The position numbers and the translations under genes are program-made. 64,000 bases of DNA from Zeus faber (taxonomy: Eukaryota > Chordata > Actinopteri > Zeiformes > Zeidae): positions 1,240,001 through 1,304,000 of the forward strand of contig CAUIJY010000068.1 in assembly GCA_960531495.1 (NCBI GenBank), written 5' to 3'. Below the pieces are notes generated by a model. It was not told the origin of the DNA and made no database searches. It worked only from the letters and a program-made list of their open reading frames with translations. Shown piece by piece: positions 1 through 64,000 of the stretch. Within the stretch, counting starts at the first letter, position 1; each line of letters starts with the position of its first letter.

Positions 1-208
1 TGCTCAGATAGTGTAAATACTGTTATGAACTGATTTGTAATGGGAAAGTACTGTTTGCAAAAGAGTTTTTGGCACATCAAACAAGTTTTTCTGAAATTAC
101 GAGCAGTTTCATAAAAACCTGCATGGGGGGCAAACATGGCATTTTCAGGCAATTTAAAGACTGAAAGGATGTTTTGAGTAAAGGTTTCTGTCATGACTCT
201 CTAGGACC
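1..208 (+). repeat. G6-variant monomer, copy 1
   Basis: This monomer has a run of six G (125-130) where others have ggatgg or gggtgg, plus the private variants cacatcaaac, cgagcagtt and caaacatggc. The same combination recurs at 19159, 23113, 28110 and 44764 and nowhere else that I found, so it is a useful landmark for long-range duplication. Each copy is followed by the 206-bp monomer with the gactgtagg tail. Confidence 0.9.
190..197. other. 8-bp palindrome GTCATGAC (first example)
   Basis: GTCATGAC is its own reverse complement and lies at monomer positions 190-197. It is present in most monomers. It is broken in the tail types that read gtcataac, gtcataaa or gtcataca. It contains TCATGA, so a digest at that site should give a ladder near 208 bp with gaps at those types. 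No function can be inferred from the sequence alone. Confidence 0.85.
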
Positions 209-414
209 TGCTCAGATAGTGTAAATACTGTTATGAACTGATTTGTAATGGGAATTTACTGTTTGCAAAACAGTTTTTGGCACATCTAACAAGTTTTTCT
301 GAAATTACAAGCATTTTCATAAAAACCTGCATGGATGGCAAACAAGGCATTTTCAGGAAATTTAAAGACCGAAAGAATGTTTTGAGTAAAGGTTTCTGTC
401 ATGACTGTAGGAAC
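209..414 (+). repeat. 206-bp short-tail monomer (first copy)
   Basis: The tail reads catgactgtagg in place of catgactctgtagg, a loss of 2 bp that shortens the monomer. It also carries aggaaattt and accgaaagaatg, the latter adding a CpG. The short tail recurs near 6441, 12897, 15603, 19558, 23512, 28509, 31630, 38706, 45163, 51831 and 59126, so all copies probably descend from one deletion. The frame change opens a reverse-strand reading frame of 61-64 codons at each site, which I judge to be non-coding. Confidence 0.88.
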
Positions 415-1248
415 TGCTCAGATAGTGTAAATACTGGTATGAACTGATTTGTAATGGGAAAGTACTGTTTGCAAAACAGTTTTTGGCACATCTAACAAGT
501 TTTTCTGAAATTACAAGCATTTTCATAAAAACCTGCATGGATGGCAAACAAGGCATTTTCAGGCAATTTAAAGACTGAAAGGATGCTTTGAGTAAAGGTT
601 TCTGTCATAAATCTGTAGGAACTGCTCAGATAGTGTAAATACTGTTATGAACTCATTTGTAATGGGAAAGTACTGTTTGCAGAACAGTTTTTGGCACATC
701 TAACAATTTTTTTCTGAAATTACGAGCATTTTCATAAAAAAACTGCATGGATGGCAAACAAGGCATTTTCAGGAAATTTAAAGACTGAAAGGATGTTTTG
801 AGTAAAGGTTTCTGTCATGACTCTCTAGGACCTGCTCAGATAGTGTAAATACTGTTATGAACTGATTTGTAATGGGAAAGTACTGTTTGCAAAATAGTTT
901 TTGGCACATCTAACAAGTTTTTCTGAAATTACAAGCATTTTCATAAAAACCTGCATGGATGGCAAACAAGGCATTTTCAGGCAATTTAAAGACTGAAAGA
1001 ATGTTTTGAGTAAAGGTTTCTGTCATGACTCTGTAGGAACTGCTCAGATAGTGTAAATACTGTTATGAACTCATTTGTAATTGGAAAGTACTGTTTGCAA
1101 AATAGTTTTTTGCACATCTAACAAGTTTTTCTGAAATTATGAGCATTTTCATAAAAACCTGCATGGATGGCAAACATGGCATTTTCAGGCAATTTGAAGA
1201 CTGAAAGGATGTTTTGAGTAAAGGTTTCTGTCATGACTCTCTAGGACC

Positions 1249-1456: not shown

Positions 1457-3342
1457 TGCTCAGATAGTGTAAATACTGTTATGAACTGATTTGTAATGGG
1501 AAAGTATTGTTTGCAAAACAGTTTTTGGCACATCTAACAAGTTTTTCTGAAATTACGTGCAGTTTCATAAAAACCTGCATGGGTGGCAAACAAGGCATTT
1601 TCAGGCAATTTAAAGACTGAAAGGATGTTTTGAGTAAAGGTTTCTGTCATAACTCTGTAGGAACTGCTCAGATAGTGTAAATACTGTTATGAACTCATTT
1701 GTAATGGGAAAGTACTGTTTGCAGAACAGTTTTTGGCACATCTAACAACTTTTTTCTGAAATTACGAGCATTTTCATAAAAACCTGCATGGATGGCAAAC
1801 AAGGCATTTTCAGGCAATTTAAAGACTGAAAGGATGTTTTGAGTAAAGGTTTCTGTCATGACTCTCTAGGAACTGCTCAGATAGTGTAAATACTGTTATG
1901 AACTCATTTGTAATGGGAAAGTACTGTTTGCAGAACAGTTTTTGGCACATCTAACAATTTTTTTCTGAAATTACGAGCATTTTCATAAAAACCTGCATGG
2001 ATGGCAAACAAGGCATTTTCAGGCAATTTAAAGACTGAAAGGATGTTTTGAGTAAAGGTTTCTGTCATGACTCTGTAGGAACTGCTCAGATAGTGTAAAT
2101 ACTGTTATGAACTCATTTGTAATGGGAAAGTACTGTTTGCAAAAGAGTTTTTGGCACATCTAACAAGTTTTTCTGAAATTATGAGCATTTTCATAAAAAC
2201 CTGCATGGATGGCAAACAAGGCATTTTCAGGCAATTTGAAGACTGAAAGGATGTTTTGAGTAAAGGTTTCTGTCATGACTCTCTAGGAACTGCTCAGATA
2301 GTGTAAATACTGTTATGAACTCATTTGTAATGGGAAAGTACTGTTTGCAGAACAGTTTTTGGCACATCTAACAACTTTTTTCTGAAATTACGAGCATTTT
2401 CATAAAAACCTGCATGGATGGCAAACAAGGCATTTTCAGGCAATTTAAAGACTGAAAGGATGTTTTGAGTAAAGGTTTCTGTCATGACTTTGTAGGAACT
2501 GCTCAGATAGTGTAAATACTGTTATGAACTCATTTGTAATGGGAAAGTACTGTTTGCAAAAGAGTTTTTGGCACATCTAACAAGTTTTTCTGAAATTATG
2601 AGCATTTTCATAAAAACCTGTATGGATGGCAAACAAGGCATTTTCAGGCAATTTAAAGACTGAAAGGATGCTTTGAGTAAAGGTTTCTGTCATACATCTG
2701 TAGGAACTGCTCAGATAGTGTAAATACTGTTATGAACTGATTTGTAATGGGAAAGTATTGTTTGCAAAACAGTTTTTGGCACATCTAACAAGTTTTTCTG
2801 AAATTACGTGCAGTTTCATAAAAACCTGCATGGGTGGCAAACAAGGCATTTTCAGGCAATTTAAAGACTGAAAGGATGTTTTGAGTAAAGGTTTCTGTCA
2901 TAACTCTGTAGGAACTGCTCAGATAGTGTAAATACTGTTATGAACTCATTTGAAATGGGAAAGTACTGTTTGCAGAACAGTTTTTGGCACATCTAACAAC
3001 TTTTTTCTGAAATTACGAGCATTTTCATAAAAACCTGCATGGATGGCAAACAAGGCATTTTCAGGCAATTTAAAGACTGAAAGGATGTTTTGAGTAAAGG
3101 TTTCTGTCATGACTTTGTAGGAACTGCTCAGATAGTGTAAATACTGTTATGAACTCATTTGTAATGGGAAATTACTGTTTGCAAAAGAGTTTTGGCACAT
3201 CTAACAAGTTTTTCTGAAATTATGAGCATTTTCATAAAAACCTGCATGGATGGCAAACAAGGCATTTTCAGGCAATTTGAAGACTGAAAGGATGTTTTGA
3301 GTAAAGGTTTCTGTCATGACTCTGTAGGAACTGCTCAGATAG

Positions 3343-3350
3343 TATAAATA
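3343..3350 (+). other. TATAAATA variant of the monomer (copy 1)
   Basis: A G-to-A change turns gtgtaaatac into gtataaatac, which creates a perfect match to the TATA-box consensus. Seen four times, always in the second monomer of the 833-bp tetramer. The match may be chance: no initiator or gene follows it. Confidence 0.6.
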
Positions 3351-4175
3351 CTGTTATGAACTCATTTGTAATGGGAAAGTACTGTTTGCAGAACAGTTTT
3401 TGGCACATCTAACAATTTTTTTCTGAAATTACGAGCATTTTCATAAAAACCTGCATGGATGGCAAACAAGGCATTTTCAGGCAATTTAAAGACTGAAAGG
3501 ATGTTTTGAGTAAAGGTTTCTGTCATGACTCTGTAGGAACTGCTCAGATAGTGTAAATACTGTTATGAACTCATTTGTAATGGGAAAGTACTGTTTGCAA
3601 AAGAGTTTTTGGCACATCTAACAAGTTTTTCTGAAATTATGAGCATTTTCATAAAAACCTGCATGGATGGCAAACAAGGCATTTTCAGACAATTTGAAGA
3701 CTGAAAGGATGTTTTGAGTAAAGGTTTCTGTCATGACTCTCTAGGAACTGCTCAGATAGTGTAAATACTGTTATGAACTCATTTGTAATGGGAAAGTACT
3801 GTTTGCAGAACAGTTTTTGGCACATCTAACAACTTTTTTCTGAAATTACGAGCATTTTCATAAAAACCTGCATGGATGGCAAACAAGGCATTTTCAGGCA
3901 ATTTAAAGACTGAAAGGATGTTTTGAGTAAAGGTTTCTGTCATGACTTTGTAGGAACTGCTCAGATAGTGTAAATACTGTTATGAACTCATTTGTAATGG
4001 GAAATTACTGTTTGCAAAAGAGTTTTGGCACATCTAACAAGTTTTTCTGAAATTATGAGCATTTTCATAAAAACCTGCATGGATGGCAAACAAGGCATTT
4101 TCAGGCAATTTGAAGACTGAAAGGATGTTTTGAGTAAAGGTTTCTGTCATGACTCTGTAGGAACTGCTCAGATAG

Positions 4176-4183
4176 TATAAATA
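4176..4183 (+). other. TATAAATA variant (copy 2)
   Basis: Same variant as at 3343, 833 bp downstream, in the second tetramer. Confidence 0.6.
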
Positions 4184-5116
4184 CTGTTATGAACTCATTT
4201 GTAATGGGAAAGTACTGTTTGCAGAACAGTTTTTGGCACATCTAACAATTTTTTTCTGAAATTACGAGCATTTTCATAAAAACCTGCATGGATGGCAAAC
4301 AAGGCATTTTCAGGCAATTTAAAGACTGAAAGGATGTTTTGAGTAAAGGTTTCTGTCATGACTCTGTAGGAACTGCTCAGATAGTGTAAATACTGTTATG
4401 AACTCATTTGTAATGGGAAAGTACTGTTTGCAAAAGAGTTTTTGGCACATCTAACAAGTTTTTCTGAAATTATGAGCATTTTCATAAAAACCTGCATGGA
4501 TGGCAAACAAGGCATTTTCAGACAATTTGAAGACTGAAAGGATGTTTTGAGTAAAGGTTTCTGTCATGACTCTCTAGGAACTGCTCAGATAGTGTAAATA
4601 CTGTTATGAACTCATTTGTAATGGGAAAGTACTGTTTGCAGAACAGTTTTTGGCACATCTAACAACTTTTTTCTGAAATTACGAGCATTTTCATAAAAAC
4701 CTGCATGGATGGCAAACAAGGCATTTTCAGGCAATTTAAAGACTGAAAGGATGTTTTGAGTAAAGGTTTCTGTCATGACTTTGTAGGAACTGCTCAGATA
4801 TTTTAAATACTGTTATGAACTCATTTGTAATGGGAAAGTACTGTTTGCAAAAGAGTTTTTGGCACATCTAACAAGTTTTTCTGAAATTATGAGCATTTTC
4901 ATAAAAACCTGCATGGATGGCAAACAAGGCATTTTCAGGCAATTTGAAGACTGAAAGGATGTTTTGAGTAAAGGTTTCTGTCATGACTCTCTAGGAACTG
5001 CTCAGATAGTGTAAATACTGTTATGAACTCATTTGTAATGGGAAAGTACTGTTTGCAGAACAGTTTTTGGCACATCTAACAATTTTTTTCTGAAATTACG
5101 AGCATTTTCACAAAAA

Positions 5117-5124
5117 CCTGCAGG
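5117..5124. other. CCTGCAGG octamer landmark, copy 1
   Basis: A T-to-G change in cctgcatgg makes an 8-bp palindrome. I saw it only here and at 11573, so it tags the two copies of the 6,456-bp unit. Confidence 0.75.
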
Positions 5125-7265
5125 GATGGCAAACAAGGCATTTTCAGGCAATTTAAAGACTGAAAGGATGTTTTGAGTAAAGGTTTCTGTCATGACTCTG
5201 TAGGAACTGCTCAGATAGTGTAAATACTGTTATGAACTCATTTGTAATCGGAAAGTACTGTTTGCAAAAGAGTTTTTGGCACATCTAACAAGTTTTTCTG
5301 AAATTATGAGCATTTTCATAAAAACCTGCATGGATGGCAAACAAGGCATTTTCAGGCAATTTGAAGACTGAAGGGATGTTTTGAGTAAAGGTTTCTGTCA
5401 TGACTCTCTAGGACCTGCTCAGATAGTGTAAATACTGTTATGAACTCATTTGTAATTGGAAAGTACTGTTTGCAAAATAGTTTTTGGCACATCTAACAAG
5501 TTTTTCTGAAATTACAAGCATTTTCATAAAAACCTGCATGGATGGCAAACAAGGCATTTTCAGGCAATTTAAAGACTGAAAGGATGCTTTGAGTAAAGGT
5601 TTCTGTCATAAATCTGTAGGAACTGCTCAGATAGTGTAAATACTGTTATGAACTCATTTGTAATGGGAAAGTATTGTTTGCAAAACAGTTTTTGGCACAT
5701 CTAACAAGTTTTTCTGAAATTACGTGCAGTTTCATAAAAACCTGCATGGGTGGCAAACAAGGCATTTTCAGGCAATTTAAAGACTGAAAGGATGTTTTGA
5801 GTAAAGGTTTCTGTCATAACTCTGTAGGAACTGCTCAGATAGTGTAAATACTGTTATGAACTCATTTGTAATGGGAAAGTACTGTTTGCAGAACAGTTTT
5901 TGGCACGTCTAACAACTTTTTTCTGAAATTATGAGCATTTTCATAAAAACCTGCATGGATGGCAAACAAGGCATTTTCAGGCAATTTGAAGACTGAAGGG
6001 ATGTTTTGAGTAAAGGTTTCTGTCATGACTCTCTAGGACTTGCTCAGATAGTGTAAATGCTGTTATGAACTGATTTGTAATGGGAAAGTACTGTTTGCAA
6101 AACAGTTTTTGGCATATCTAACAAGTTTTTCCGAAATTACGTGCAGTTTCATAAAAACCTGCATGGGTGGCAAACAAGGCATTTTCAGGCAATTTAAAGA
6201 CTGAAAGGATGTTTTGAGTAAAGGTTTCTGTCATAACTCTGTAGGAACTGCTCAGATAGTGTAAATACTGTTATGAACTCATTTGTAATGGGAAAGTACT
6301 GTTTGCAGAACAGTTTTTGGCACATCTAACAACTTTTTTCTGAAATTACGAGCATTTTCATAAAAACCTGCATGGATGGCAAACAAGGCATTTTCAGGCA
6401 ATTTAAAGACTGAAAGGATGTTTTGAGTAAAGGTTTCTGTCATGACTGTAGGAACTGCTCAGATAGTGTAAATACTGGTATGAACTGATTTGTAATGGGA
6501 AAGTACTGTTTGCAAAACAGTTTTTGGCACATCTAACAAGTTTTTCTGAAATTACAAGCATTTTCATAAAAACCTGCATGGATGGCAAACAAGGCAGTTT
6601 CAGGCAATTTAAAGACTGAAAGGATGCTTTGAGTAAAGGTTTCTGTCATAAATCTGTAGGAACTGCTCAGATAGTGTAAATACTGTTATGAACTGATTTG
6701 TAATGGGAAAGTATTGTTTGCAAAACAGTTTTTGGCACATCTAACAAGTTTTTCTGAAATTATGTGCAGTTTCATAAAAACCTGCATGGGTGGCAAACAA
6801 GGCATTTTCAGGCAATTTAAAGACTGAAAGGATGTTTTGAGTAAAGGTTTCTGTCATAACTCTGTAGGAACTGCTCAGATAGTGTAAATACTGATATGAA
6901 CTCATTTGTAATGGGAAAGTACTGTTTGCAGAACAGTTTTTGGCACATCTAACAATTTTTTTCTGAAATTACGAGCATTTTCACAAAAACCTGCATGGAT
7001 GGCAAACAAGGCATTTTCAGGCAATTTAAAGACTGAAAGGATGTTTTGAGTAAAGGTTTCTGTCATGACTTTGTAGGAACTGCTCAGATAGTGTAAATAC
7101 TGTTATGAACTCATTTGTAATGGGAAAGTACTGTTTGCAAAAGAGTTTTGGCACATCTAACAAGTTTTTCTGAAATTACAAGCATTTTCATAAAAACCTG
7201 CATGGATGGCAAACAAGGCATTTTCAGGAAATTTAAAGACTGAAAGGATGTTTTGAGTAAAGGTT

Positions 7266-9124
7266 TCTGTCATGACTCTCTAGGAACTGCTCAGATAGTG
7301 TAAATACTGTTATGAACTCATTTGTAATGGGAAAGTACTGTTTGCAGAACAGTTTTTGGCACATCTAACAACTTTTTTCTGAAATTACGAGCATTTTCAT
7401 AAAAACCTGCATGGATGGCAAACAAGGCATTATCAGGCAATTTAAAGACTGAAAGGATGTTTTGAGTAAAGGTTTCTGTCATGACTTTGTAGGAACTGCT
7501 CAGATAGTGTAAATACTGTTATGAACTCATTTGTAATGGGAAAGTACTGTTTGCAAAAGAGTTTTTGGCACATCTAACAAGTTTTTCTGAAATTATGAGC
7601 ATTTTCATAAAAACCTGCATGGATGGCAAACAAGGCATTTTCAGGCAATTTGAAGACTGAAAGGATGTTTTGAGTAAAGGTTTCTGTCATGACTCTCTAG
7701 GAACTGCTCAGATAGTGTAAATACTGTTATGAACTCATTTGTAATGGGAAAGTACTGTTTGCAGAACAGTTTTTGGCACATCTAACAATTTTTTTCTGAA
7801 ATTACGAGCATTTTCACAAAAACCTGCATGGATGGCAAACAAGGCATTTTCAGGCAATTTAAAGACTGAAAGGATGTTTTGAGTAAAGGTTTCTGTCATG
7901 ACTCTGTAGGAACTGCTCAGATAGTGTAAATACTGTTATGAACTCATTTGTAATCGGAAAGTACTGTTTGCAAAAGAGTTTTTGGCACATCTAACAAGTT
8001 TTTCTGAAATTATGAGCATTTTCATAAAAACCTGCATGGATGGCAAACAAGGCATTTTCAGGCAATTTGAAGACTGAAGGGATGTTTTGAGTAAAGGTTT
8101 CTGTCATGACTCTCTAGGACCTGCTCAGATAGTGTAAATACTGTTATGAACTCATTTGTAATTGGAAAGTACTGTTTGCAAAATAGTTTTTGGCACATCT
8201 AACAAGTTTTTCTGAAATTACAAGCATTTTCATAAAAACCTGCATGGATGGCAAACAAGGCATTTTCAGGCAATTTAAAGACTGAAAGGATGCTTTGAGT
8301 AAAGGTTTCTGTCATAAATCTGTAGGAACTGCTCAGATAGTGTAAATACTGTTATGAACTGATTTGTAATGGGAAAGTATTGTTTGCAAAACAGTTTTTG
8401 GCACATCTAACAAGTTTTTCTGAAATTACGTGCAGTTTCATAAAAACCTGCATGGGTGGCAAACAAGGCATTTTCAGGCAATTTAAAGACTGAAAGGATG
8501 TTTTGAGTAAAGGTTTCTGTCATAACTCTGTAGGAACTGCTCAGATAGTGTAAATACTGTTATGAACTCATTTGTAATGGGAAAGTACTGTTTGCAGAAC
8601 AGTTTTTGGCACGTCTAACAACTTTTTTCTGAAATTATGAGCATTTTCATAAAAACCTGCATGGATGGCAAACAAGGCATTTTCAGGCAATTTGAAGACT
8701 GAAGGGATGTTTTGAGTAAAGGTTTCTGTCATGACTCTCTAGGACTTGCTCAGATAGTGTAAATGCTGTTATGAACTGATTTGTAATGGGAAAGTACTGT
8801 TTGCAAAACAGTTTTTGGCATATCTAACAAGTTTTTCCGAAATTACGTGCAGTTTCATAAAAACCTGCATGGGTGGCAAACAAGGCATTTTCAGGCAATT
8901 TAAAGACTGAAAGGATGTTTTGAGTAAAGGTTTCTGTCATAACTCTGTAGGAACTGCTCAGATAGTGTAAATACTGTTATGAACTCATTTGTAATGGGAA
9001 AGTACTGTTTGCAGAACAGTTTTTGGCACATCTAACAACTTTTTTCTGAAATTACGAGCATTTTCATAAAAACCTGCATGGATGGCAAACAAGGCATTTT
9101 CAGGCAATTTAAAGACTGAAAGGA
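7266..9124 (+). repeat. Internal repeat at 2,706-bp offset (13 monomers)
   Basis: This stretch matches about 4560-6418, 2,706 bp upstream. Shared variants include taatcggaaag (near 5246 and 7952), taattgg (near 5450 and 8156), cataactctg (5815 and 8521) and gtaaatgc (6053 and 8759). The match fails upstream where acaagc/aggaaattt replaces atgagc/cagacaattt, and downstream where the gactgtagg tail would be expected but catacatctg appears, at the edge of the larger duplication. The pattern is inherited in the second 31-monomer copy (gtaaatgc at 12509 and 15215), so this duplication came first. Confidence 0.82.
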
Positions 9125-9580
9125 TGCTTTGAGTAAAGGTTTCTGTCATACATCTGTAGGAACTGCTCAGATAGTGTAAATACTGTTATGAACTGATTTG
9201 TAATGGGAAAGTATTGTTTGCAAAACAGTTTTTGGCACATCTAACAAGTTTTTCTGAAATTACGTGCAGTTTCATAAAAACCTGCATGGGTGGCAAACAA
9301 GGCATTTTCAGGCAATTTAAAGACTGAAAGGATGTTTTGAGTAAAGGTTTCTGTCATAACTCTGTAGGAACTGCTCAGATAGTGTAAATACTGTTATGAA
9401 CTCATTTGAAATGGGAAAGTACTGTTTGCAGAACAGTTTTTGGCACATCTAACAACTTTTTTCTGAAATTACGAGCATTTTCATAAAAACCTGCATGGAT
9501 GGCAAACAAGGCATTTTCAGGCAATTTAAAGACTGAAAGGATGTTTTGAGTAAAGGTTTCTGTCATGACTTTGTAGGAAC

Positions 9581-11246
9581 TGCTCAGATAGTGTAAATAC
9601 TGTTATGAACTCATTTGTAATGGGAAATTACTGTTTGCAAAAGAGTTTTGGCACATCTAACAAGTTTTTCTGAAATTATGAGCATTTTCATAAAAACCTG
9701 CATGGATGGCAAACAAGGCATTTTCAGGCAATTTGAAGACTGAAAGGATGTTTTGAGTAAAGGTTTCTGTCATGACTCTGTAGGAACTGCTCAGATAGTA
9801 TAAATACTGTTATGAACTCATTTGTAATGGGAAAGTACTGTTTGCAGAACAGTTTTTGGCACATCTAACAATTTTTTTCTGAAATTACGAGCATTTTCAT
9901 AAAAACCTGCATGGATGGCAAACAAGGCATTTTCAGGCAATTTAAAGACTGAAAGGATGTTTTGAGTAAAGGTTTCTGTCATGACTCTGTAGGAACTGCT
10001 CAGATAGTGTAAATACTGTTATGAACTCATTTGTAATGGGAAAGTACTGTTTGCAAAAGAGTTTTTGGCACATCTAACAAGTTTTTCTGAAATTATGAGC
10101 ATTTTCATAAAAACCTGCATGGATGGCAAACAAGGCATTTTCAGACAATTTGAAGACTGAAAGGATGTTTTGAGTAAAGGTTTCTGTCATGACTCTCTAG
10201 GAACTGCTCAGATAGTGTAAATACTGTTATGAACTCATTTGTAATGGGAAAGTACTGTTTGCAGAACAGTTTTTGGCACATCTAACAACTTTTTTCTGAA
10301 ATTACGAGCATTTTCATAAAAACCTGCATGGATGGCAAACAAGGCATTTTCAGGCAATTTAAAGACTGAAAGGATGTTTTGAGTAAAGGTTTCTGTCATG
10401 ACTTTGTAGGAACTGCTCAGATAGTGTAAATACTGTTATGAACTCATTTGTAATGGGAAATTACTGTTTGCAAAAGAGTTTTGGCACATCTAACAAGTTT
10501 TTCTGAAATTATGAGCATTTTCATAAAAACCTGCATGGATGGCAAACAAGGCATTTTCAGGCAATTTGAAGACTGAAAGGATGTTTTGAGTAAAGGTTTC
10601 TGTCATGACTCTGTAGGAACTGCTCAGATAGTATAAATACTGTTATGAACTCATTTGTAATGGGAAAGTACTGTTTGCAGAACAGTTTTTGGCACATCTA
10701 ACAATTTTTTTCTGAAATTACGAGCATTTTCATAAAAACCTGCATGGATGGCAAACAAGGCATTTTCAGGCAATTTAAAGACTGAAAGGATGTTTTGAGT
10801 AAAGGTTTCTGTCATGACTCTGTAGGAACTGCTCAGATAGTGTAAATACTGTTATGAACTCATTTGTAATGGGAAAGTACTGTTTGCAAAAGAGTTTTTG
10901 GCACATCTAACAAGTTTTTCTGAAATTATGAGCATTTTCATAAAAACCTGCATGGATGGCAAACAAGGCATTTTCAGACAATTTGAAGACTGAAAGGATG
11001 TTTTGAGTAAAGGTTTCTGTCATGACTCTCTAGGAACTGCTCAGATAGTGTAAATACTGTTATGAACTCATTTGTAATGGGAAAGTACTGTTTGCAGAAC
11101 AGTTTTTGGCACATCTAACAACTTTTTTCTGAAATTACGAGCATTTTCATAAAAACCTGCATGGATGGCAAACAAGGCATTTTCAGGCAATTTAAAGACT
11201 GAAAGGATGTTTTGAGTAAAGGTTTCTGTCATGACTTTGTAGGAAC
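9581..11246 (+). repeat. 833-bp tetramer pair inside copy 2
   Basis: Units 9581-10413 and 10414-11246, the counterparts of 3125-4790 at the 6,456-bp offset. The TATAAATA variants fall at 9799-9806 and 10632-10639. Confidence 0.88.
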
Positions 11247-11572
11247 TGCTCAGATATTTTAAATACTGTTATGAACTCATTTGTAATGGGAAAGTACTGT
11301 TTGCAAAAGAGTTTTTGGCACATCTAACAAGTTTTTCTGAAATTATGAGCATTTTCATAAAAACCTGCATGGATGGCAAACAAGGCATTTTCAGGCAATT
11401 TGAAGACTGAAAGGATGTTTTGAGTAAAGGTTTCTGTCATGACTCTCTAGGAACTGCTCAGATAGTGTAAATACTGTTATGAACTCATTTGTAATGGGAA
11501 AGTACTGTTTGCAGAACAGTTTTTGGCACATCTAACAATTTTTTTCTGAAATTACGAGCATTTTCACAAAAA

Positions 11573-11580
11573 CCTGCAGG
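11573..11580. other. CCTGCAGG octamer landmark, copy 2
   Basis: Same change as at 5117, exactly 6,456 bp downstream. Confidence 0.75.
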
Positions 11581-18116: not shown

Positions 18117-18213
18117 TGCTCAGATAGTGTAAATACTGTTATGAACTGATTTGTAATGGGAAAGTACTGTTTGCAAAACAGTTTTTGGCACATCTAACAA
18201 GTTTTTCCGAAAT

Positions 18214-18219
18214 CACGTG
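18214..18219. other. CACGTG palindrome, first of about 30 copies
   Basis: In the variant ending ccgaaatcacgtgcag the sequence forms CACGTG, an E-box/G-box hexamer, with two CpGs close together. I saw none before 18.2 kb, where the equivalent monomers read attacgtgc or attatgtgc. After this point it recurs in each higher-order unit (for example near 20918, 22167, 26333, 27167, 30495, 33827 and 46108). Protein binding is not shown. Confidence 0.8.
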
Positions 18220-19158: not shown

Positions 19159-19366
19159 TGCTCAGATAGTGTAAATACTGTTATGAACTGATTTGTAATG
19201 GGAAAGTACTGTTTGCAAAAGAGTTTTTGGCACATCAAACAAGTTTTTCTGAAATTACGAGCAGTTTCATAAAAACCTGCATGGGGGGCAAACATGGCAT
19301 TTTCAGGCAATTTAAAGACTGAAAGGATGTTTTGAGTAAAGGTTTCTGTCATGACTCTCTAGGACC
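19159..19366 (+). repeat. G6-variant monomer, copy 2
   Basis: Same diagnostic set as at 1-208. It is followed by a 206-bp monomer (19367-19572) and the cagattgtg monomer. Confidence 0.9.
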
Positions 19367-53600: not shown

Positions 53601-54299
53601 TTTCTGAAATTATGAGCATTTTCATAAAAACCTGCATGGATGGCAAACAAGGCATTTTCAGGCAATTTGAAGACTGAAAGGATGTTTTGAGTAAAGGTTT
53701 CTGTCATGACTCTGTAGGAACTGCTCAGATAGTGTAAATACTGTTATGAACTCATTTGTAATGGGAAAGTACTGTTTGCAGAACAGTTTTTGGCACATCT
53801 AACAATTTTTTTCTGAAATTACGAGCATTTTCCTAAAAACCTGCATGGATGGCAAACAAGGCATTTTCAGGCAATTTAAAGACTGAAAGGATGTTTTGAG
53901 TAAAGGTTTCTGTCATGACTGTGTAGGACCTGCTCAGATAGTGTAAATACTGTTATGAACTGATTTGTAATGGGAAAGTACTGTTTGCAAAACAGTTTTT
54001 GGCACATCTAACAAGTTTTTCTGAAATTATGAGCATTTTCATAAAAACCTGCATGGATGGCAAACAAGGCATTTTCAGGCAATTTGAAGACTGAAAGGAT
54101 GTTTTGAGTAAAGGTTTCTGTCATGACTCTCTAGGAACTGCTCAGATAGTGTAAATACTGTTATGAACTCATTTGTAATGGGAAAGTACTGTTTGCGGAA
54201 CAGTTTTTGGCACATCTAACAACTTTTTTCTGAAATTACGAGCATTTTCATAAAAACCTGCATGGGTGGCAAACAAGGCATTTTCAGGCAATTTTAAAG
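47005..54299 (+). repeat. 35-monomer duplication (7,295 bp), copy 1
   Basis: Everything from about 47005 to 54262 recurs 7,295 bp downstream: gactgtgtagg (47040 and 54335), tggattgc (48635 and 55930; 52386 and 59681), ttcctaaa (50079 and 57374; 53830 and 61125), tttgagg (50531 and 57826) and the fused-monomer reverse frame (47547 and 54842). Inside it an 18-monomer, 3,751-bp step is visible (48635 to 52386; 50079 to 53830). The remaining 3,544 bp to the next landmark are the same step with one monomer fewer. Confidence 0.9.
51639..52053 (+). repeat. Two chimeric monomers in series
   Basis: 51639-51845 begins as a gcagaacag/cacaaa monomer and ends as the 206-bp type (aggaaattt, accgaaagaatg, gactgtagg). 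51846-52053 begins actggtatg with taattgg and gcaaaatag, a combination otherwise known from region A, and ends as a CACGTG/gggtgg monomer. The pair is repeated at 58934-59348. Confidence 0.82.
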
Positions 54300-54348
54300 A
54301 CTGAAAGGATGTTTTGAGTAAAGGTTTCTGTCATGACTGTGTAGGACC
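54139..54348 (+). repeat. Chimeric 210-bp monomer at the 7,295-bp duplication joint
   Basis: The left part is a gcagaacag/aactttttt type, here with a private gcggaac. After cctgcat it switches to gggtgg and attttaaag of another type, and then to the gactgtgtaggacctg tail of a third. It lies where copy 1 passes into copy 2 and has no match at the equivalent place near 61557, so it marks the recombination joint. Confidence 0.82.
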
Positions 54349-57300
54349 TGCTCAGATAGTGTAAATACTGTTATGAACTGATTTGTAATGGGAAAGTACT
54401 GTTTGCAAAAGAGTTTTTGGCACATCTAACAAGTTTTTCTGAATTTATGAGCATTTTCATAAAAACCTGCATGGATGGCAAACAAGGCATTTTCAGGCAA
54501 TTTGAAGACTGAAGGGATGTTTTGAGTAAAGGTTTCTGTCATGACTCTCTAGGACTTGCTCAGATAGTGTAAATACTGTTATGAACTGATTTGTAATGGG
54601 AAAGTACTGTTTGCAAAACAGTTTTTGGCACATCTAACAAGTTTTTCTGAAATTACAAGCATTTTCATAAAAACCTGCATGGATGGCAAACAAGGCAGTT
54701 TCAGGCAATTTAAAGACTGAAAGGATGCTTTGAGTAAAGGTTTCTGTCATAAATCTGTAGGAACTGCTCAGATAGTGTAAATACTGTTATGAACTGATTT
54801 GTAATGGGAAAGTATTGTTTGCAAAACAGTTTTTGGCACATCTAACAAGTTTTTCTGAAATTACGTGCAGTTTCATAAAAACCTGCATGGGTGGCAAACA
54901 AGGCATTTTCAGGCAATTTAAAGACTGAAAGGATGTTTTGAGTAAAGGTTTCTGTCATAACTCTGTAGGAACTGCTCAGATAGTGTAAATACTGATATGA
55001 TATGATTTGTAATGGGAAAGTACTGTTTGCAAAACAGTTTTTGGCACATCTAACAAGTTTTTCTGAAATTATGAGCATTTTCATAAAAACCTGCATGGAT
55101 GGCAAACAAGGCATTTTCAGGCAATTTGAAGACTGAAAGGATGTTTTGAGTAAAGGTTTCTGTCATGACTCTCTAGGAACTGCTCAGATAGTGTAAATAC
55201 TGTTATGAACTCATTTGTAATGGGAAAGTACTGTTTGCAGAACAGTTTTTGGCACATCTAACAACTTTTTTCTGAAATTACGAGCATTTTCATAAAAACC
55301 TGCATGGATGGCAAACAAGGCATTTTCAGGCAATTTGAAGACTGAAGGGATGTTTTGAGTAAAGGTTTCTGTCATGACTCTCTAGGACTTGCTCAGATAG
55401 TGTAAATACTGTTATGAACTGATTTGTAATGGGAAAGTACTGTTTGCAAAACAGTTTTTGGCACATCTAACAAGTTTTTCCGAAATCACGTGCAGTTTCA
55501 TAAAAACCTGCATGGGTGGCAAACAAGGCATTTTCAGGCAATTTAAAGACTGAAAGGATGTTTTGAGTAAAGGTTTCTGTCATGACTCTCTAGGAACTGC
55601 TCAGATAGTGTAAATACTGTTATGAACTCATTTGTAATGGGAAAGTACTGTTTGCAGAACAGTTTTTGGCACATCTAACAATTTTTTTCTGAAATTACGA
55701 GCATTTTCACAAAAACCTGCATGGATGGCAAACAAGGCATTTTCAGGCAATTTAAAGACTGAAAGGATGTTTTGAGTAAAGGTTTCTGTCATGACTCTGT
55801 AGGAACTGCTCAGATAGTGTAAATACTGTTATGAACTCATTTGTAATGGGAAAGTACTGTTTGCAAAAGAGTTTTTGGCACATCTAACAAGTTTTTCTGA
55901 AATTATGAGCATTTTCATAAAAACCTGCATGGATTGCAAACAAGGCATTTTCAGGCAATTTGAAGACTGAAGGGATGTTTTGAGTAAAGGTTTCTGTCAT
56001 GACTCTCTAGGACTTGCTCAGATAGTGTAAATACTGTTATGAACTGATTTGTAATGGGAAAGTACTGTTTGCAAAACAGTTTTTGGCACATCTAACAAGT
56101 TTTTCCGAAATCACGTGCAGTTTCATAAAAACCTGCATGGGTGGCAAACAAGGCATTTTCAGGCAATTTTAAAGACTGAAAGGATGTTTTGAGTAAAGGT
56201 TTCTGTCATAACTCTGTAGGAACTGCTCAGATAGTGTAAATACTGTTATGAACTCATTTGTAATGGGAAAGTACTGTTTGCAGAACAGTTTTTGGCACAT
56301 CTAACAAATTTTTTCTGAAATTACGAGCATTTTCATAAAAACCTGCATGGATGGCAAACAAGGCATTTTCAGGCAATTTAAAGACTGAAAGGATGTTTTG
56401 AGTAAAGGTTTCTGTCATGACTGTGTAGGACCTGCTCAGATAGTGTAAATACTGTTATGAACTGATTTGTAATGGGAAAGTACTGTTTGCAAAAGAGTTT
56501 TTGGCACATCTAACAAGTTTTTCTGAATTTATGAGCATTTTCATAAAAACCTGCATGGATGGCAAACAAGGCATTTTCAGGCAATTTGAAGACTGAAGGG
56601 ATGTTTTGAGTAAAGGTTTCTGTCATGACTCTCTAGGACTTGCTCAGATAGTGTAAATACTGTTATGAACTGATTTGTAATGGGAAAGTACTGTTTGCAA
56701 AACAGTTTTTGGCACATCTAACAAGTTTTTCTGAAATTATGAGCATTTTCATAAAAACCTGCATGGATGGCAAACAAGGCATTTTCAGGCAATTTGAAGA
56801 CTGAAAGGATGTTTTGAGTAAAGGTTTCTGTCATGACTCTCTAGGAACTGCTCAGATAGTGTAAATACTGTTATGAACTCATTTGTAATGGGAAAGTACT
56901 GTTTGCAGAACAGTTTTTGGCACATCTAACAACTTTTTTCTGAAATTACGAGCATTTTCATAAAAACCTGCATGGATGGCAAACAAGGCATTTTGAGGCA
57001 ATTTAAAGACTGAAAGGATGTTTTGAGTAAAGGTTTCTGTCATGACTTTGTAGGAACTGCTCAGATAGTGTAAATACTGTTATGAACTCATTTGTAATAG
57101 GAAAGTACTGTTTGCAAAAGAGTTTTTGGCACATCTAACAAGTTTTTCTGAAATTATGAGCATTTTCATAAAAACCTGCATGGATGGCAAACAAGGCATT
57201 TTCAGGCAATTTGAAGACTGAAAGGATGTTTTGAGTAAAGGTTTCTGTCATGACTCTGTAGGAACTGCTCAGATAGTGTAAATACTGTTATGAACTCATT

Positions 57301-60300
57301 TGTAATGGGAAAGTACTGTTTGCAGAACAGTTTTTGGCACATCTAACAATTTTTTTCTGAAATTACGAGCATTTTCCTAAAAACCTGCATGGATGGCAAA
57401 CAAGGCATTTTCAGGCAATTTAAAGACTGAAAGGATGTTTTGAGTAAAGGTTTCTGTCATGACTGTGTAGGACCTGCTCAGATAGTGTAAATACTGTTAT
57501 GAACTGATTTGTAATGGGAAAGTACTGTTTGCAAAACAGTTTTTGGCACATCTAACAAGTTTTTCTGAAATTATGAGCATTTTCATAAAAACCTGCATGG
57601 ATGGCAAACAAGGCATTTTCAGGCAATTTGAAGACTGAAAGGATGTTTTGAGTAAAGGTTTCTGTCATGACTCTCTAGGAACTGCTCAGATAGTGTAAAT
57701 ACTGTTATGAACTCATTTGTAATGGGAAAGTACTGTTTGCAGAACAGTTTTTGGCACATCTAACAACTTTTTTCTGAAATTACGAGCATTTTCATAAAAA
57801 CCTGCATGGATGGCAAACAAGGCATTTTGAGGCAATTTAAAAACTGAAAGGATGTTTTGAGTAAAGGTTTCTGTCATGACTCTGTAGGAACTGCTCAGAT
57901 AGTGTAAATACTGTTATGAACTCATTTGTAATGGGAAAGTACTGTTTGCAAAAGAGTTTTTGGCACATCTAACAATTTTTTTCTGAAATTACGAGCATTT
58001 TCATAAAAACCTGCATGGATGGCAAACAAGGCATTTTCAGGCAATTTAAAAACTGAAAGGATGTTTTGAGTAAAGGTTTCTGTCATGACTCTGTAGGAAC
58101 TGCTCAGATAGTGTAAATACTGTTATGAACTCATTTGTAATGGGAAAGTACTGTTTGCAAAAGAGTTTTTGGCACATCTAACAAGTTTTTCTGAATTTAT
58201 GAGCATTTTCATAAAAACCTGCATGGATGGCAAACAAGGCATTTTCAGGCAATTTGAAGACTGAAGGGATGTTTTGAGTAAAGGTTTCTGTCATGACTCT
58301 CTAGGACTTGCTCAGATAGTGTAAATACTGTTATGAACTGATTTGTAATGGGAAAGTACTGTTTGCAAAACAGTTTTTGGCACATCTAACAAGTTTTTCT
58401 GAAATTATGAGCATTTTCATAAAAACCTGCATGGATGGCAAACAAGGCATTTTCAGGCAATTTGAAGACTGAAAGGATGTTTTGAGTAAAGGTTTCTGTC
58501 ATGACTCTCTAGGAACTGCTCAGATAGTGTAAATACTGTTATGAACTCATTTGTAATGGGAAAGTACTGTTTGCAGAACAGTTTTTGGCACATCTAACAA
58601 CTTTTTTCTGAAATTACGAGCATTTTCATAAAAACCTGCATGGATGGCAAACAAGGCATTTTCAGGCAATTTGAAGACTGAAGGGATGTTTTGAGTAAAG
58701 GTTTCTGTCATGACTCTCTAGGACTTGCTCAGATAGTGTAAATACTGTTATGAACTGATTTGTAATGGGAAAGTACTGTTTGCAAAACAGTTTTTGGCAC
58801 ATCTAACAAGTTTTTCCGAAATCACGTGCAGTTTCATAAAAACCTGCATGGGTGGCAAACAAGGCATTTTCAGGCAATTTAAAGACTGAAAGGATGTTTT
58901 GAGTAAAGGTTTCTGTCATGACTCTCTAGGAACTGCTCAGATAGTGTAAATACTGTTATGAACTCATTTGTAATGGGAAAGTACTGTTTGCAGAACAGTT
59001 TTTGGCACATCTAACAATTTTTTTCTGAAATTACGAGCATTTTCACAAAAACCTGCATGGATGGCAAACAAGGCATTTTCAGGAAATTTAAAGACCGAAA
59101 GAATGTTTTGAGTAAAGGTTTCTGTCATGACTGTAGGAACTGCTCAGATAGTGTAAATACTGGTATGAACTCATTTGTAATTGGAAAGTACTGTTTGCAA
59201 AATAGTTTTTGGCACATCTAACAAGTTTTTCCGAAATCACGTGCAGTTTCATAAAAACCTGCATGGGTGGCAAACAAGGCATTTTCAGGCAATTTAAAGA
59301 CTGAAAGGATGTTTTGAGTAAAGGTTTCTGTCATGACTCTCTAGGAACTGCTCAGATAGTGTAAATACTGTTATGAACTCATTTGTAATGGGAAAGTACT
59401 GTTTGCAGAACAGTTTTTGGCACATCTAACAATTTTTTTCTGAAATTACGAGCATTTTCACAAAAACCTGCATGGATGGCAAACAAGGCATTTTCAGGCA
59501 ATTTAAAGACTGAAAGGATGTTTTGAGTAAAGGTTTCTGTCATGACTCTGTAGGAACTGCTCAGATAGTGTAAATACTGTTATGAACTCATTTGTAATGG
59601 GAAAGTACTGTTTGCAAAAGAGTTTTTGGCACATCTAACAAGTTTTTCTGAAATTATGAGCATTTTCATAAAAACCTGCATGGATTGCAAACAAGGCATT
59701 TTCAGGCAATTTGAAGACTGAAGGGATGTTTTGAGTAAAGGTTTCTGTCATGACTCTCTAGGACTTGCTCAGATAGTGTAAATACTGTTATGAACTGATT
59801 TGTAATGGGAAAGTACTGTTTGCAAAACAGTTTTTGGCACATCTAACAAGTTTTTCCGAAATCACGTGCAGTTTCATAAAAACCTGCATGGGTGGCAAAC
59901 AAGGCATTTTCAGGCAATTTTAAAGACTGAAAGGATGTTTTGAGTAAAGGTTTCTGTCATAACTCTGTAGGAACTGCTCAGATAGTGTAAATACTGTTAT
60001 GAACTCATTTGTAATGGGAAAGTACTGTTTGCAGAACAGTTTTTGGCACATCTAACAAATTTTTTCTGAAATTACGAGCATTTTCATAAAAACCTGCATG
60101 GATGGCAAACAAGGCATTTTCAGGCAATTTAAAGACTGAAAGGATGTTTTGAGTAAAGGTTTCTGTCATGACTGTGTAGGACCTGCTCAGATAGTGTAAA
60201 TACTGTTATGAACTGATTTGTAATGGGAAAGTACTGTTTGCAAAAGAGTTTTTGGCACATCTAACAAGTTTTTCTGAATTTATGAGCATTTTCATAAAAA

Positions 60301-61557
60301 CCTGCATGGATGGCAAACAAGGCATTTTCAGGCAATTTGAAGACTGAAGGGATGTTTTGAGTAAAGGTTTCTGTCATGACTCTCTAGGACTTGCTCAGAT
60401 AGTGTAAATACTGTTATGAACTGATTTGTAATGGGAAAGTACTGTTTGCAAAACAGTTTTTGGCACATCTAACAAGTTTTTCTGAAATTATGAGCATTTT
60501 CATAAAAACCTGCATGGATGGCAAACAAGGCATTTTCAGGCAATTTGAAGACTGAAAGGATGTTTTGAGTAAAGGTTTCTGTCATGACTCTCTAGGAACT
60601 GCTCAGATAGTGTAAATACTGTTATGAACTCATTTGTAATGGGAAAGTACTGTTTGCAGAACAGTTTTTGGCACATCTAACAACTTTTTTCTGAAATTAC
60701 GAGCATTTTCATAAAAACCTGCATGGATGGCAAACAAGGCATTTTGAGGCAATTTAAAGACTGAAAGGATGTTTTGAGTAAAGGTTTCTGTCATGACTTT
60801 GTAGGAACTGCTCAGATAGTGTAAATACTGTTATGAACTCATTTGTAATAGGAAAGTACTGTTTGCAAAAGAGTTTTTGGCACATCTAACAAGTTTTTCT
60901 GAAATTATGAGCATTTTCATAAAAACCTGCATGGATGGCAAACAAGGCATTTTCAGGCAATTTGAAGACTGAAAGGATGTTTTGAGTAAAGGTTTCTGTC
61001 ATGACTCTGTAGGAACTGCTCAGATAGTGTAAATACTGTTATGAACTCATTTGTAATGGGAAAGTACTGTTTGCAGAACAGTTTTTGGCACATCTAACAA
61101 TTTTTTTCTGAAATTACGAGCATTTTCCTAAAAACCTGCATGGATGGCAAACAAGGCATTTTCAGGCAATTTAAAGACTGAAAGGATGTTTTGAGTAAAG
61201 GTTTCTGTCATGACTGTGTAGGACCTGCTCAGATAGTGTAAATACTGTTATGAACTGATTTGTAATGGGAAAGTACTGTTTGCAAAACAGTTTTTGGCAC
61301 ATCTAACAAGTTTTTCTGAAATTATGAGCATTTTCATAAAAACCTGCATGGATGGCAAACAAGGCATTTTCAGGCAATTTGAAGACTGAAAGGATGTTTT
61401 GAGTAAAGGTTTCTGTCATGACTCTCTAGGAACTGCTCAGATAGTGTAAATACTGTTATGAACTCATTTGTAATGGGAAAGTACTGTTTGCAGAACAGTT
61501 TTTGGCACATCTAACAACTTTTTTCTGAAATTACGAGCATTTTCATAAAAACCTGCA
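54300..61557 (+). repeat. 35-monomer duplication, copy 2
   Basis: Tandem copy of 47005-54262. I saw no consistent differences over about 7.2 kb when comparing landmarks, apart from the edges. The end is placed where copy 1 enters its chimeric joint monomer and this copy continues as an ordinary aactttttt/gaaggg monomer. Confidence 0.88.
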
Positions 61558-64000
61558 TGGATGGCAAACAAGGCATTTTCAGGCAATTTGAAGACTGAAG
61601 GGATGTTTTGAGTAAAGGTTTCTGTCATGACTCTCTAGGACTTGCTCAGATAGTGTAAATACTGTTATGAACTGATTTGTAATGGGAAAGTACTGTTTGC
61701 AAAACAGTTTTTGGCACATCTAACAAGTTTTTCCGAAATCACGTGCAGTTTCATAAAAACCTGCATGGGTGGCAAACAAGGCATTTTCAGGCAATTTAAA
61801 GACTGAAAGGATGTTTTGAGTAAAGGTTTCTGTCATGACTCTCTAGGAACTGCTCAGATAGTGTAAATACTGTTATGAACTCATTTGTAATGGGAAAGTA
61901 CTGTTTGCAGAACAGTTTTTGGCACATCTAACAATTTTTTTCTGAAATTACGAGCATTTTCACAAAAACCTGCATGGATGGCAAACAAGGCATTTTCAGG
62001 CAATTTAAAGACTGAAAGGATGTTTTGAGTAAAGGTTTCTGTCATGACTCTGTAGGAACTGCTCAGATAGTGTAAATACTGTTATGAACTCATTTGTAAT
62101 GGGAAAGTACTGTTTGCAAAAGAGTTTTTGGCACATCTAACAAGTTTTTCTGAAATTATGAGCATTTTCATAAAAACCTGCATGGATGGCAAACAAGGCA
62201 TTTTCAGGCAATTTGAAGACTGAAGGGATGTTTTGAGTAAAGGTTTCTGTCATGACTCTCTAGGACTTGCTCAGATAGTGTAAATGCTGTTATGAACTGA
62301 TTTGTAATGGGAAAGTACTGTTTGCAAAACAGTTTTTGGCATATCTAACAAGTTTTTCCGAAATTACGTGCAGTTTCATAAAAACCTGCATGGGTGGCAA
62401 ACAAGGCATTTTCAGGCAATTTAAAGACTGAAAGGATGTTTTGAGTAAAGGTTTCTGTCATAACTCTGTAGGAACTGCTCAGATAGTGTAAATACTGTTA
62501 TGAACTCATTTGTAATGGGAAAGTACTGTTTGCAGAACAGTTTTTGGCACATCTAACAACTTTTTTCTGAAATTACGAGCATTTTCATAAAAACCTGCAT
62601 GGATGGCAAACAAGGCATTTTCAGGCAATTTAAAGACTGAAAGGATGTTTTGAGTAAAGGTTTCTGTCATGACTCTCTAGGACCTGCTCAGATAGTGTAA
62701 ATACTGTTATGAACTGATTTGTAATGGGAAAGTACTGTTTGCAAAAGAGTTTTTGGCACATCTAACAAGTTTTTCTGAAATTATGAGCATTTTCATAAAA
62801 ACCTGCATGGATGGCAAACAAGGCATTTTCAGGCAATTTGAAGACTGAAAGGATGTTTTGAGTAAAGGTTTCTGTCATGACTCTGTAGGAACTGCTCAGA
62901 TAGTGTAAATACTGTTATGAACTCATTTGTAATGGGAAAGTACTGTTTGCAGAACAGTTTTTGGCACATCTAACAATTTTTTTCTGAAATTACGAGCATT
63001 TTCCTAAAAACCTGCATGGATGGCAAACAAGGCATTTTCAGGCAATTTAAAGACTGAAAGGATGTTTTGAGTAAAGGTTTCTGTCATGACTGTGTAGGAC
63101 CTGCTCAGATAGTGTAAATACTGTTATGAACTGATTTGTAATGGGAAAGTACTGTTTGCAAAACAGTTTTTGGCACATCTAACAAGTTTTTCTGAAATTA
63201 TGAGCATTTTCATAAAAACCTGCATGGATGGCAAACAAGGCATTTTCAGGCAATTTGAAGACTGAAAGGATGTTTTGAGTAAAGGTTTCTGTCATGACTC
63301 TCTAGGAACTGCTCAGATAGTGTAAATACTGTTATGAACTCATTTGTAATGGGAAAGTACTGTTTGCAGAACAGTTTTTGGCACATCTAACAACTTTTTT
63401 CTGAAATTACGAGCATTTTCATAAAAACCTGCATGGATGGCAAACAAGGCATTTTGAGGCAATTTAAAAACTGAAAGGATGTTTTGAGTAAAGGTTTCTG
63501 TCATGACTCTGTAGGAACTGCTCAGATAGTGTAAATACTGTTATGAACTCATTTGTAATGGGAAAGTACTGTTTGCAAAAGAGTTTTTGGCACATCTAAC
63601 AATTTTTTTCTGAAATTACGAGCATTTTCATAAAAACCTGCATGGATGGCAAACAAGGCATTTTCAGGCAATTTAAAAACTGAAAGGATGTTTTGAGTAA
63701 AGGTTTCTGTCATGACTCTGTAGGAACTGCTCAGATAGTGTAAATACTGTTATGAACTCATTTGTAATGGGAAAGTACTGTTTGCAAAAGAGTTTTTGGC
63801 ACATCTAACAAGTTTTTCTGAATTTATGAGCATTTTCATAAAAACCTGCATGGATGGCAAACAAGGCATTTTCAGGCAATTTGAAGACTGAAGGGATGTT
63901 TTGAGTAAAGGTTTCTGTCATGACTCTCTAGGACTTGCTCAGATAGTGTAAATACTGTTATGAACTGATTTGTAATGGGAAAGTACTGTTTGCAAAACAG
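61558..64000 (+). repeat. Region D: mixed B-type and C-type monomers to window end
   Basis: After the CACGTG monomer at 61643 the order returns to the region B start (cacaaa type, gaaggg type, gtaaatgc type at 62280, aactttttt type). It then switches near 62.7 kb to the C-type run with ttcctaaa (63001) and tttgagg (63453). That last run matches 50079-50531 at an offset of 12,922 bp. The array continues past the end of the window. Confidence 0.8.

What the first reader, a model, noticed from the sequence alone, without database searches (positions are those of the whole stretch)
1..64000. Entire window is a single 208-bp satellite with nested higher-order repeats
Over 300 same-strand monomers, no interruption, and at least three distinct higher-order periods (31-mer, about 16-mer, about 18-mer). 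Such organisation is best known from primate alpha satellite and a few other centromeres. I do not recognise this monomer, so it may be an undescribed satellite and a candidate centromere core.
Basis: partly seen in the sequence, partly recalled or inferred. Interest (0 to 1): 0.75.

Follow-up and report, generated by a model that had tools for sequence, protein, structure and literature searches.

The report
Locally duplicating 208-bp satellite DNA array
The whole window is one stretch of host satellite DNA, a 208-base unit repeated about 307 times, and its 'higher-order repeats' turn out to be recent local duplications, mostly in two copies, rather than a true alpha-satellite-like hierarchy; it may lie in a centromere, but sequence alone cannot show that.

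Summary
All 64 kb is one head-to-tail, single-strand array of 307 complete monomers of 206-210 bp (consensus 208 bp, mean 97.3% identity to consensus, 95.6% pairwise), without interruption. Long-period order is far beyond chance: the longest run of near-identical monomers is 34, against at most 4 in 100 permutations. But 'nested higher-order repeats' overstates it. No unit of 2-59 monomers has three consecutive near-identical copies; six units have two. The 31-mer is real (two copies, one difference). The '18-mer' is a ten-monomer block at lags 18 and 17. The '16-mer' is only a seven-monomer block. A 35-mer duplication identical over 7,199 bp and a 34-monomer-lag one were missed. Junction monomers of the 31-mer and 10-mer are perfect in-register recombinants, pointing to unequal exchange or break-induced replication. 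Three monomer classes avoid their own kind as neighbour (36 of 306 against 108 expected). There is no CENP-B box. A centromere is plausible and untested. Organism unknown; cichlid SATA (209 bp) and the Xenopus tropicalis 205-bp satellite are leads by length only.

The parts
1..64000 (+). Satellite array, 208-bp consensus monomer, 307 complete copies in one orientation
   Evidence: TRF; monomer cutting; anchor 0 times on the minus strand
2708..15410 (+). 31-monomer (6,456-bp) tandem duplication, two copies: 2708-8954 and 9164-15410, 30 monomers with 1 difference; 6,101 bp exact (2622-8722 = 9078-15178)
8955..9163 (+). Junction monomer of the 31-mer duplication (monomer 43): 5' part as monomer 74, 3' part as monomer 12, breakpoint between monomer positions 122 and 171, no private difference
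   Evidence: coordinates; control: perfect hybrids in 16 of 17,057 random triples in which both parents differ at 4 or more positions
17700..30188 (+). Mosaic duplications: lag 43 (17700-21237 and 26652-30188, 17 monomers, 3 differences), lag 19 (12 monomers, 2 differences) and lag 24 (12 monomers, 3 differences)
28590..40236 (+). 34-monomer-lag duplication, 4,571 bp exact (28590-33160 = 35666-40236), with a nested exact 6-monomer tandem duplication (34353-35600 = 35601-36848)
45178..49345 (+). 10-monomer tandem duplication (45178-47261 and 47262-49345, 1 difference); junction monomer 227 (47262-47469) is a perfect recombinant of its two flanking partners
46998..61491 (+). 35-monomer (7,295-bp) tandem duplication, two copies exact over 7,199 bp (46998-54196 = 54293-61491)
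54139..54348 (+). Junction monomer of the 35-mer duplication (monomer 260): recombinant pattern plus 3 differences shared with neither partner
   Evidence: coordinates
48303..61433 (+).

Best explanation
This is a young, homogeneous stretch of a host tandem satellite in a eukaryote with heavy CpG methylation (probably a vertebrate; a plant is possible), most likely in centromeric or pericentromeric heterochromatin. It renews itself by repeated local, in-register copying of blocks of 4 to 35 monomers: a break or exchange pairs one monomer with another a few kilobases away at the same monomer position, and the block between them is duplicated. Shown: the array, its uniformity, the duplicated blocks, and recombinant junction monomers at the same monomer position for two of them. 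Inferred: that the event is unequal sister exchange or break-induced replication. Also inferred: exchange prefers monomers of the same class, which would keep the old neighbour order (A-B, B-C, C-A and so on, rarely same-to-same) in place. If the array is centromeric, it would serve as the bed on which CENP-A nucleosomes are deposited, with no CENP-B-type sequence signal. That step is inference only.
For: 307 full monomers, one strand, no insert. Only 81 distinct monomer sequences, 26 of them seen once. 82.5% of the window lies in exact repeats of 1 kb or more. 7,199-bp and 6,101-bp exact copies, which bound divergence at about 4-5 in 10,000. Perfect in-register hybrid junctions for the 31-mer and the 10-mer duplications, a hybrid with 3 extra differences for the 35-mer. 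The first differing monomer pair at the end of a repeated run is of the same class at 55 of 76 run ends against 0.356 for random pairs. Same-class neighbours 36 of 306 against 108.3 (sd 8.0, minimum 76 in 5,000 permutations); counting each distinct neighbour pair once, 19 of 132 against 46.9 (sd 5.3). CpG observed/expected 0.12, TG 1.37, CA 1.62. No Rfam family at gathering score, no tRNA, one ORF of 100 aa or more.
Against: Only 3 of 7 junctions examined show a hybrid (two perfect, one with 3 private changes). Three (lags 6, 4a, 4b) are uninformative, 4b being the copy of 4a inside the 31-mer; the middle monomer of 4c is identical to one partner, so no breakpoint is visible. The 13-mer and the mosaic blocks (lags 9, 17-19, 24, 34, 43) were not examined for hybrids. 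Run ends are not independent of one another. Centromeric position is unsupported by direct data. Features sometimes used as centromere hints are absent: no CENP-B box, no excess of short dyads in the consensus (stem 6: 3 against 2.3 expected, P 0.40), no conserved block among the 81 distinct monomers (longest invariant run 12, P 0.47). A subtelomeric or other heterochromatic satellite could look the same. An assembly error could produce exact tandem copies; this cannot be checked here.
Confidence: 0.7

Rival explanations
1. A true higher-order repeat array of the alpha-satellite kind, of which the window holds only an edge or a transition zone; many-copy HORs would lie outside it.
For: Three interleaved monomer classes; multi-monomer copies of near 100% identity.
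Against: No unit of 2-59 monomers reaches three consecutive near-identical copies in 64 kb; monomers are already 95.6% alike on average.
Confidence: 0.15
2. A member of the cichlid SATA (ONSATA) centromeric satellite family, hence already described.
For: Length only: ONSATA is a 209-bp unit found almost solely in centromeres by FISH (PMC5414186, passages). Malawi cichlids carry a 237-bp form and tilapia a 206-bp form, with an indel given as 29 bp (PMC4053949, passages); 237 minus 29 is 208, though 237 minus 206 is 31. CpG depletion suits a vertebrate.
Against: No SATA sequence was available to compare; many unrelated satellites are near this length; none of six 17-18-mers and six 12-mers of the monomer (each set three places on both strands) led to a satellite paper (listings).
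Confidence: 0.2
3. A non-centromeric (subtelomeric, interstitial or B/sex-chromosome) heterochromatic satellite evolving by the same neutral unequal exchange.
For: Nothing found in the sequence is specific to centromeres: no CENP-B box, no dyad excess and no conserved block.
Against: Long arrays of nucleosome-scale monomers without transposon inserts are most often centromeric or pericentromeric (general knowledge, recalled).
Confidence: 0.25
4. The long exact tandem copies are assembly artefacts (duplicated graph paths), and the real array is less ordered.
For: Zero differences over 7,199 bp is also what a duplicated path would give.
Against: Two junction monomers are recombinants rather than simple repeats, the 31-mer pair carries 1 difference, and the 35-mer junction carries 3 private differences; shorter copies with 1-5 differences form a graded series.
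Confidence: 0.1

Closest known systems
Cichlid SATA / ONSATA satellite (209 bp; 237-bp long form; PMC5414186 and PMC4053949, passages)
   Same: Monomer length within 1 bp of 209; long tandem arrays; vertebrate-like CpG depletion is consistent
   Different: Sequence could not be compared; organism of the window unknown
Xenopus tropicalis CENP-A-bound 205-bp satellite (PMC10794172, passages)
   Same: Similar length; monomers over 95% identical on average, as here (95.6%)
   Different: Length differs by 3 bp; sequence could not be compared
Primate alpha satellite with A/B monomers and HORs (PMC8997354 passages; PMC11062924 passages)
   Same: Interleaved monomer classes that rarely neighbour their own kind; multi-monomer units copied with near identity; growth explained by exchange or break-induced replication
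   Different: 208 not 171 bp; monomers about 95% alike rather than 50-70% within a unit; each tandem unit in two copies only within 64 kb; no CENP-B box
Aye-aye centromere repeat Dm209 (PMC13228423, passages and Table 2)
   Same: 209 bp, tandem
   Different: GC 40.67% in the paper's Table 2 against 34.5-36.0% here; occurs beside a 267-bp form, not seen here; sequence not compared
Arabidopsis CEN178 arrays with local, irregular, low-copy HORs (recalled; paper not held)
   Same: Mostly homogeneous monomers with local low-copy block duplications
   Different: Monomer length and sequence; the comparison rests on recall

Membership tests
Satellite DNA (tandem array) | Head-to-tail monomers, one orientation, high identity, long array | tested here: met
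   307 complete monomers, + strand only, 95.6% mean pairwise identity
Higher-order repeat array (alpha-satellite type) | Multi-monomer unit repeated many times in tandem | tested here: not met
   No unit of 2-59 monomers with three or more consecutive near-identical copies in the window; units 4, 6, 10, 13, 31 and 35 have two
Higher-order repeat array (alpha-satellite type) | Copies of the unit far more alike than the monomers within it | tested here: met
   Copies 0-1 difference over 30-34 monomers against 9.6 differences per random monomer pair; but monomers are about 95% alike, so the contrast is weaker than in alpha satellite
CENP-B-box satellite | CENP-B box (core residues recalled, TTCGNNNNANNCGGG) | tested here: not met
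   0 matches with up to 2 mismatches on both strands; 25.4 expected by chance
Centromeric satellite | CENP-A / CENP-C occupancy, position at primary constriction | not testable with these tools
   No chromatin, FISH or assembly-position data; no genome held for the window
Centromeric satellite with non-B DNA | Excess of short dyad symmetries | tested here: not met
   Consensus monomer, loops up to 20 bases, 1,000 dinucleotide shuffles: stem 5, 8 against 8.1 expected; stem 6, 3 against 2.3; stem 7, 1 against 0.6
Cichlid SATA | Monomer length 206-209 bp (or 237 bp) | tested here: met
   Consensus 208 bp against 209 bp and 206 bp
Cichlid SATA | Sequence similarity to ONSATA | not testable with these tools
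   No SATA sequence in the passages read or in the collections held
Xenopus tropicalis 205-bp centromere repeat | Sequence similarity | not testable with these tools
   Sequence not printed in the passages seen

The most novel reading that the evidence does not exclude
An undescribed vertebrate centromere satellite with three monomer classes whose neighbour order is almost never same-to-same, kept in place without any CENP-B box because exchange pairs like class with like class; the array thus holds an A/B-style alternation by recombination alone and not by selection for a protein site.
Probability: 0.25. Interest if true: 0.45.

Novelty: new member of a known kind. Interest (0 to 1): 0.25.

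Why it matters
Arrays with block copies so recent that junction monomers can still be read give a direct record of how satellites grow. Here the readable junctions lie at the same position in both parent monomers, which is what unequal exchange and break-induced replication predict. The avoidance of same-class neighbours in an array with no CENP-B box offers a test of whether the A/B alternation of alpha satellite needs selection on that box. Otherwise this is an ordinary, very uniform satellite array.

Tried and rejected
Identity of the satellite: no match to the first 2,000 bases in plasmids, phages or E. coli genomes by distant blastn. No exact match of three patterns in viral contigs or of two in genome contigs. 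These collections are not expected to hold eukaryote satellites, so the misses say little. The window's own genome is not held.

Paper searches (ten in all). Monomer 17-18-mers gave 0 papers. 12-mers gave 4 papers whose titles have nothing to do with satellites (listing only). '208 bp' or '208-bp' with satellite or centromere terms gave 0, 0, 2 and 1 papers, and 2,879 papers with 3 of 4 terms, of which 40 were listed and 8 of these hold '208 bp'. Of the papers holding '208 bp' or '208-bp' I opened passages of five. One concerns a 208-bp repeat: Cannabis delCS-237, about 2.5 monomers in the ribosomal intergenic spacer, 89% alike (PMC9183113), a poor fit by setting and copy number, sequence not compared. 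The others use 208 bp for a contig length, a digit string, a spacer and a concatenated fragment. Satellite-style names such as Sat01-208 gave 1 paper, unrelated by its title (listing). Neighbouring lengths gave 104 papers, 40 listed, and led to the tilapia and lemur papers; the '207 bp' of PMC2543021 is a trimer of another repeat. The cichlid search listed 9, of which I saw passages of three. The aye-aye Dm209 repeat is disfavoured by its GC of 40.67%.

Protein-binding motif: no conserved block beyond chance and no dyad excess. A WW dinucleotide spectrum of the consensus gave its highest of the eight periods printed at 9.9 bp, 7.4 times the mean; the same measure on 12,480 bases of raw array gave 0.5 at 9.9, 1.1 at 10.4 and 2.6 at 9.04, smeared by the 206-210-bp length drift. 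I draw nothing from either. RNA, tRNA or gene origin: no Rfam match at gathering score, no tRNA, one ORF of 123 aa on the minus strand, taken as chance and not searched further. Age: zero differences in 7,199 bp gives an upper 95% bound of about 21,000 generations at 1e-8 or 60,000 at 3.5e-9 per site per generation (both rates recalled), valid only if gene conversion has not reset the copies.
Full report
What is there. The window is one tandem array from end to end. TRF gives period 208 with 307.3 copies over 1-64000. Cutting by alignment to an iterated consensus gives 307 complete monomers of 206-210 bp, with a 65-bp remainder at the end. A 22-base anchor from the monomer, with up to 5 substitutions, is found 289 times on the plus strand and never on the minus strand. 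GC is 34.5-36.0% in 2-kb steps with a positive GC skew throughout. Mean identity to the consensus is 97.3%, mean pairwise identity 95.6%, range 90.4-100%. There are 81 distinct monomer sequences, of which 26 occur once. CpG is at 0.12 of expectation, with TG at 1.37 and CA at 1.62, as in DNA long methylated in the germ line. That suits a vertebrate or a plant.

Long-period order. Writing each monomer as a letter and looking for runs that recur, 39 runs of 4 or more exact monomers are found, the longest 34; in 200 shuffles of monomer order the longest run is at most 4. With one difference allowed per monomer the longest is again 34, against at most 4 in 100 permutations over all lags. At base level, 46998-54196 equals 54293-61491 over 7,199 bp, 2622-8722 equals 9078-15178 over 6,101 bp, and 28590-33160 equals 35666-40236 over 4,571 bp; 82.5% of the window is in exact repeats of 1 kb or more.

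What the long-period order is not. For every unit of 2 to 59 monomers I asked for consecutive tandem copies with at most one difference on at least 80% of monomers. Units 4, 6, 10, 13, 31 and 35 pass, each with two copies and none with three. The global lag means are correspondingly flat: the best lag (35) reaches 0.9614, while the largest mean over lags 1-120 in 300 permutations was 0.9610. Shorter blocks do recur more than twice at uneven spacing, such as a ten-monomer block four times. So this is a patchwork of local block duplications and not a higher-order array in the alpha-satellite sense. 18 is the ten-monomer block at lags 18, 17, 18, two of its copies belonging to the 35-mer duplication. 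16 is a seven-monomer block with 5 differences. The largest ones, 35 and 34, were not named.

How the blocks arise. If a block is duplicated by exchange between two monomers X (before the block) and Y (after it) at the same monomer position, the monomer between the two copies should be Y at its 5' end and X at its 3' end. I examined seven tandem junctions; the 13-mer and the mosaic blocks (lags 9, 17-19, 24, 34, 43) were not examined. The 31-mer junction (monomer 43, 8955-9163) fits with no misfit: its 6 differences from X all lie at or before position 122, its 4 from Y at or after 172. X is class C and Y class B. The 10-mer junction (monomer 227) also fits with none, though it differs from X at one position only. 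The 35-mer junction (monomer 260) fits apart from 3 differences shared with neither parent: one unique in the window, one (an inserted T) shared with monomers 224, 234, 252, 269 and 287, and one common in class A. Three junctions (lag 6, and the two lag-4 copies at monomers 14-22 and 45-53, which are one event copied) are uninformative because X and Y differ at one site. At the lag-4 junction of monomers 122-130 the middle monomer is identical to Y, so no breakpoint is visible. Among 17,057 random triples in which both parents differ from the middle monomer at 4 or more positions, 16 are perfect hybrids; by that criterion only the 31-mer junction qualifies. Unequal exchange and break-induced replication both predict in-register hybrids. 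The review PMC8997354 (passages) sets out both and notes that the latter is error-prone; the three private changes at one junction beside 7,199 unchanged bases would fit that, but it is a single case, and conversion from another monomer explains at least the inserted T equally well.

Neighbour rule. Clustering on 19 variable features (18 columns where the consensus base is below 90%, and one insertion) gives three classes: A (65), B (118), C (124), with 97.8, 97.7 and 96.6% identity within and 94.1-95.2% between. Neighbours are of the same class in 36 of 306 pairs (A-A 0, B-B 8, C-C 28), where 5,000 permutations give 108.3 (sd 8.0, minimum 76). Because block copies inflate this, I counted each distinct pair of neighbouring monomer sequences once: 19 of 132 same-class against 46.9 (sd 5.3, minimum 30). 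Independently of the classes, mean identity at lag 1 is 0.9498, lower than at every lag from 2 to 12 and lower than the 0.956 of random pairs. Alpha satellite shows a comparable A/B alternation, with CENP-B boxes rarely in adjacent monomers (PMC8997354, passages). Here there is no CENP-B box, even with two mismatches. A simple reading is that exchange prefers like class with like, which leaves neighbour order unchanged: at 55 of 76 run ends the first differing pair is of the same class, against 0.356 by chance. These ends are not independent of one another, the classes were defined on the same sequences, and the one strongly informative junction joins a B to a C monomer, which goes against the preference being strict.

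Centromere or not. Nothing in hand tests it. For: a uniform array of nucleosome-scale monomers with no inserted transposon and very recent turnover. Neutral or against: no CENP-B box, no dyad excess in the consensus, no conserved block among distinct monomers. PMC11062924 (passages) describes rapid saltatory growth of human centromeric HORs, and the review notes that on human chromosome 8 CENP-A lies in a region of mixed HOR types and not in the most uniform one. Recent turnover is therefore compatible with a core but does not prove one.

Identity. No eukaryote genome or repeat library could be searched. By length the nearest described satellites met in the papers are ONSATA of Nile tilapia (209 bp, almost solely centromeric by FISH; PMC5414186, passages), with related 206-bp and 237-bp forms set apart by an indel given as 29 bp (PMC4053949, passages), and the CENP-A-bound 205-bp monomer of X. 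tropicalis with over 95% identity (PMC10794172, passages). The aye-aye Dm209 repeat is of like length but has 40.67% GC (PMC13228423). These are leads by length and not membership. Ten paper searches, told in Tried and rejected, showed no paper naming a 208-bp centromeric satellite in the titles, abstract openings and passages that I saw, in a library that lacks most subscription journals and from listings that were capped.

Verdict. A real, very uniform, recently churned satellite array. The novelty of its sequence is undecided and its function is unproven; its mode of growth is legible and ordinary in kind.

Noticed in passing
54139-54348: Junction monomer of the 35-mer duplication carries three differences from both partners while the flanking 7,199 bp of each copy are identical; possible error-prone repair or conversion.
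   Followed up: partly
17700-19158 and 61226-62684: A seven-monomer block recurs 43.5 kb away with one difference, so copying is not only between neighbours.
   Followed up: no
1-64000 (monomer position 84/85): Class B monomers carry a one-base insertion (T in 59 or C in 54 of 118) next to a G-to-T change; class B has mean length 208.9 bp against 208.0 and 207.7 for A and C.
   Followed up: partly
27932-28303: One 123-aa open frame on the minus strand, taken as chance within the satellite.
   Followed up: no
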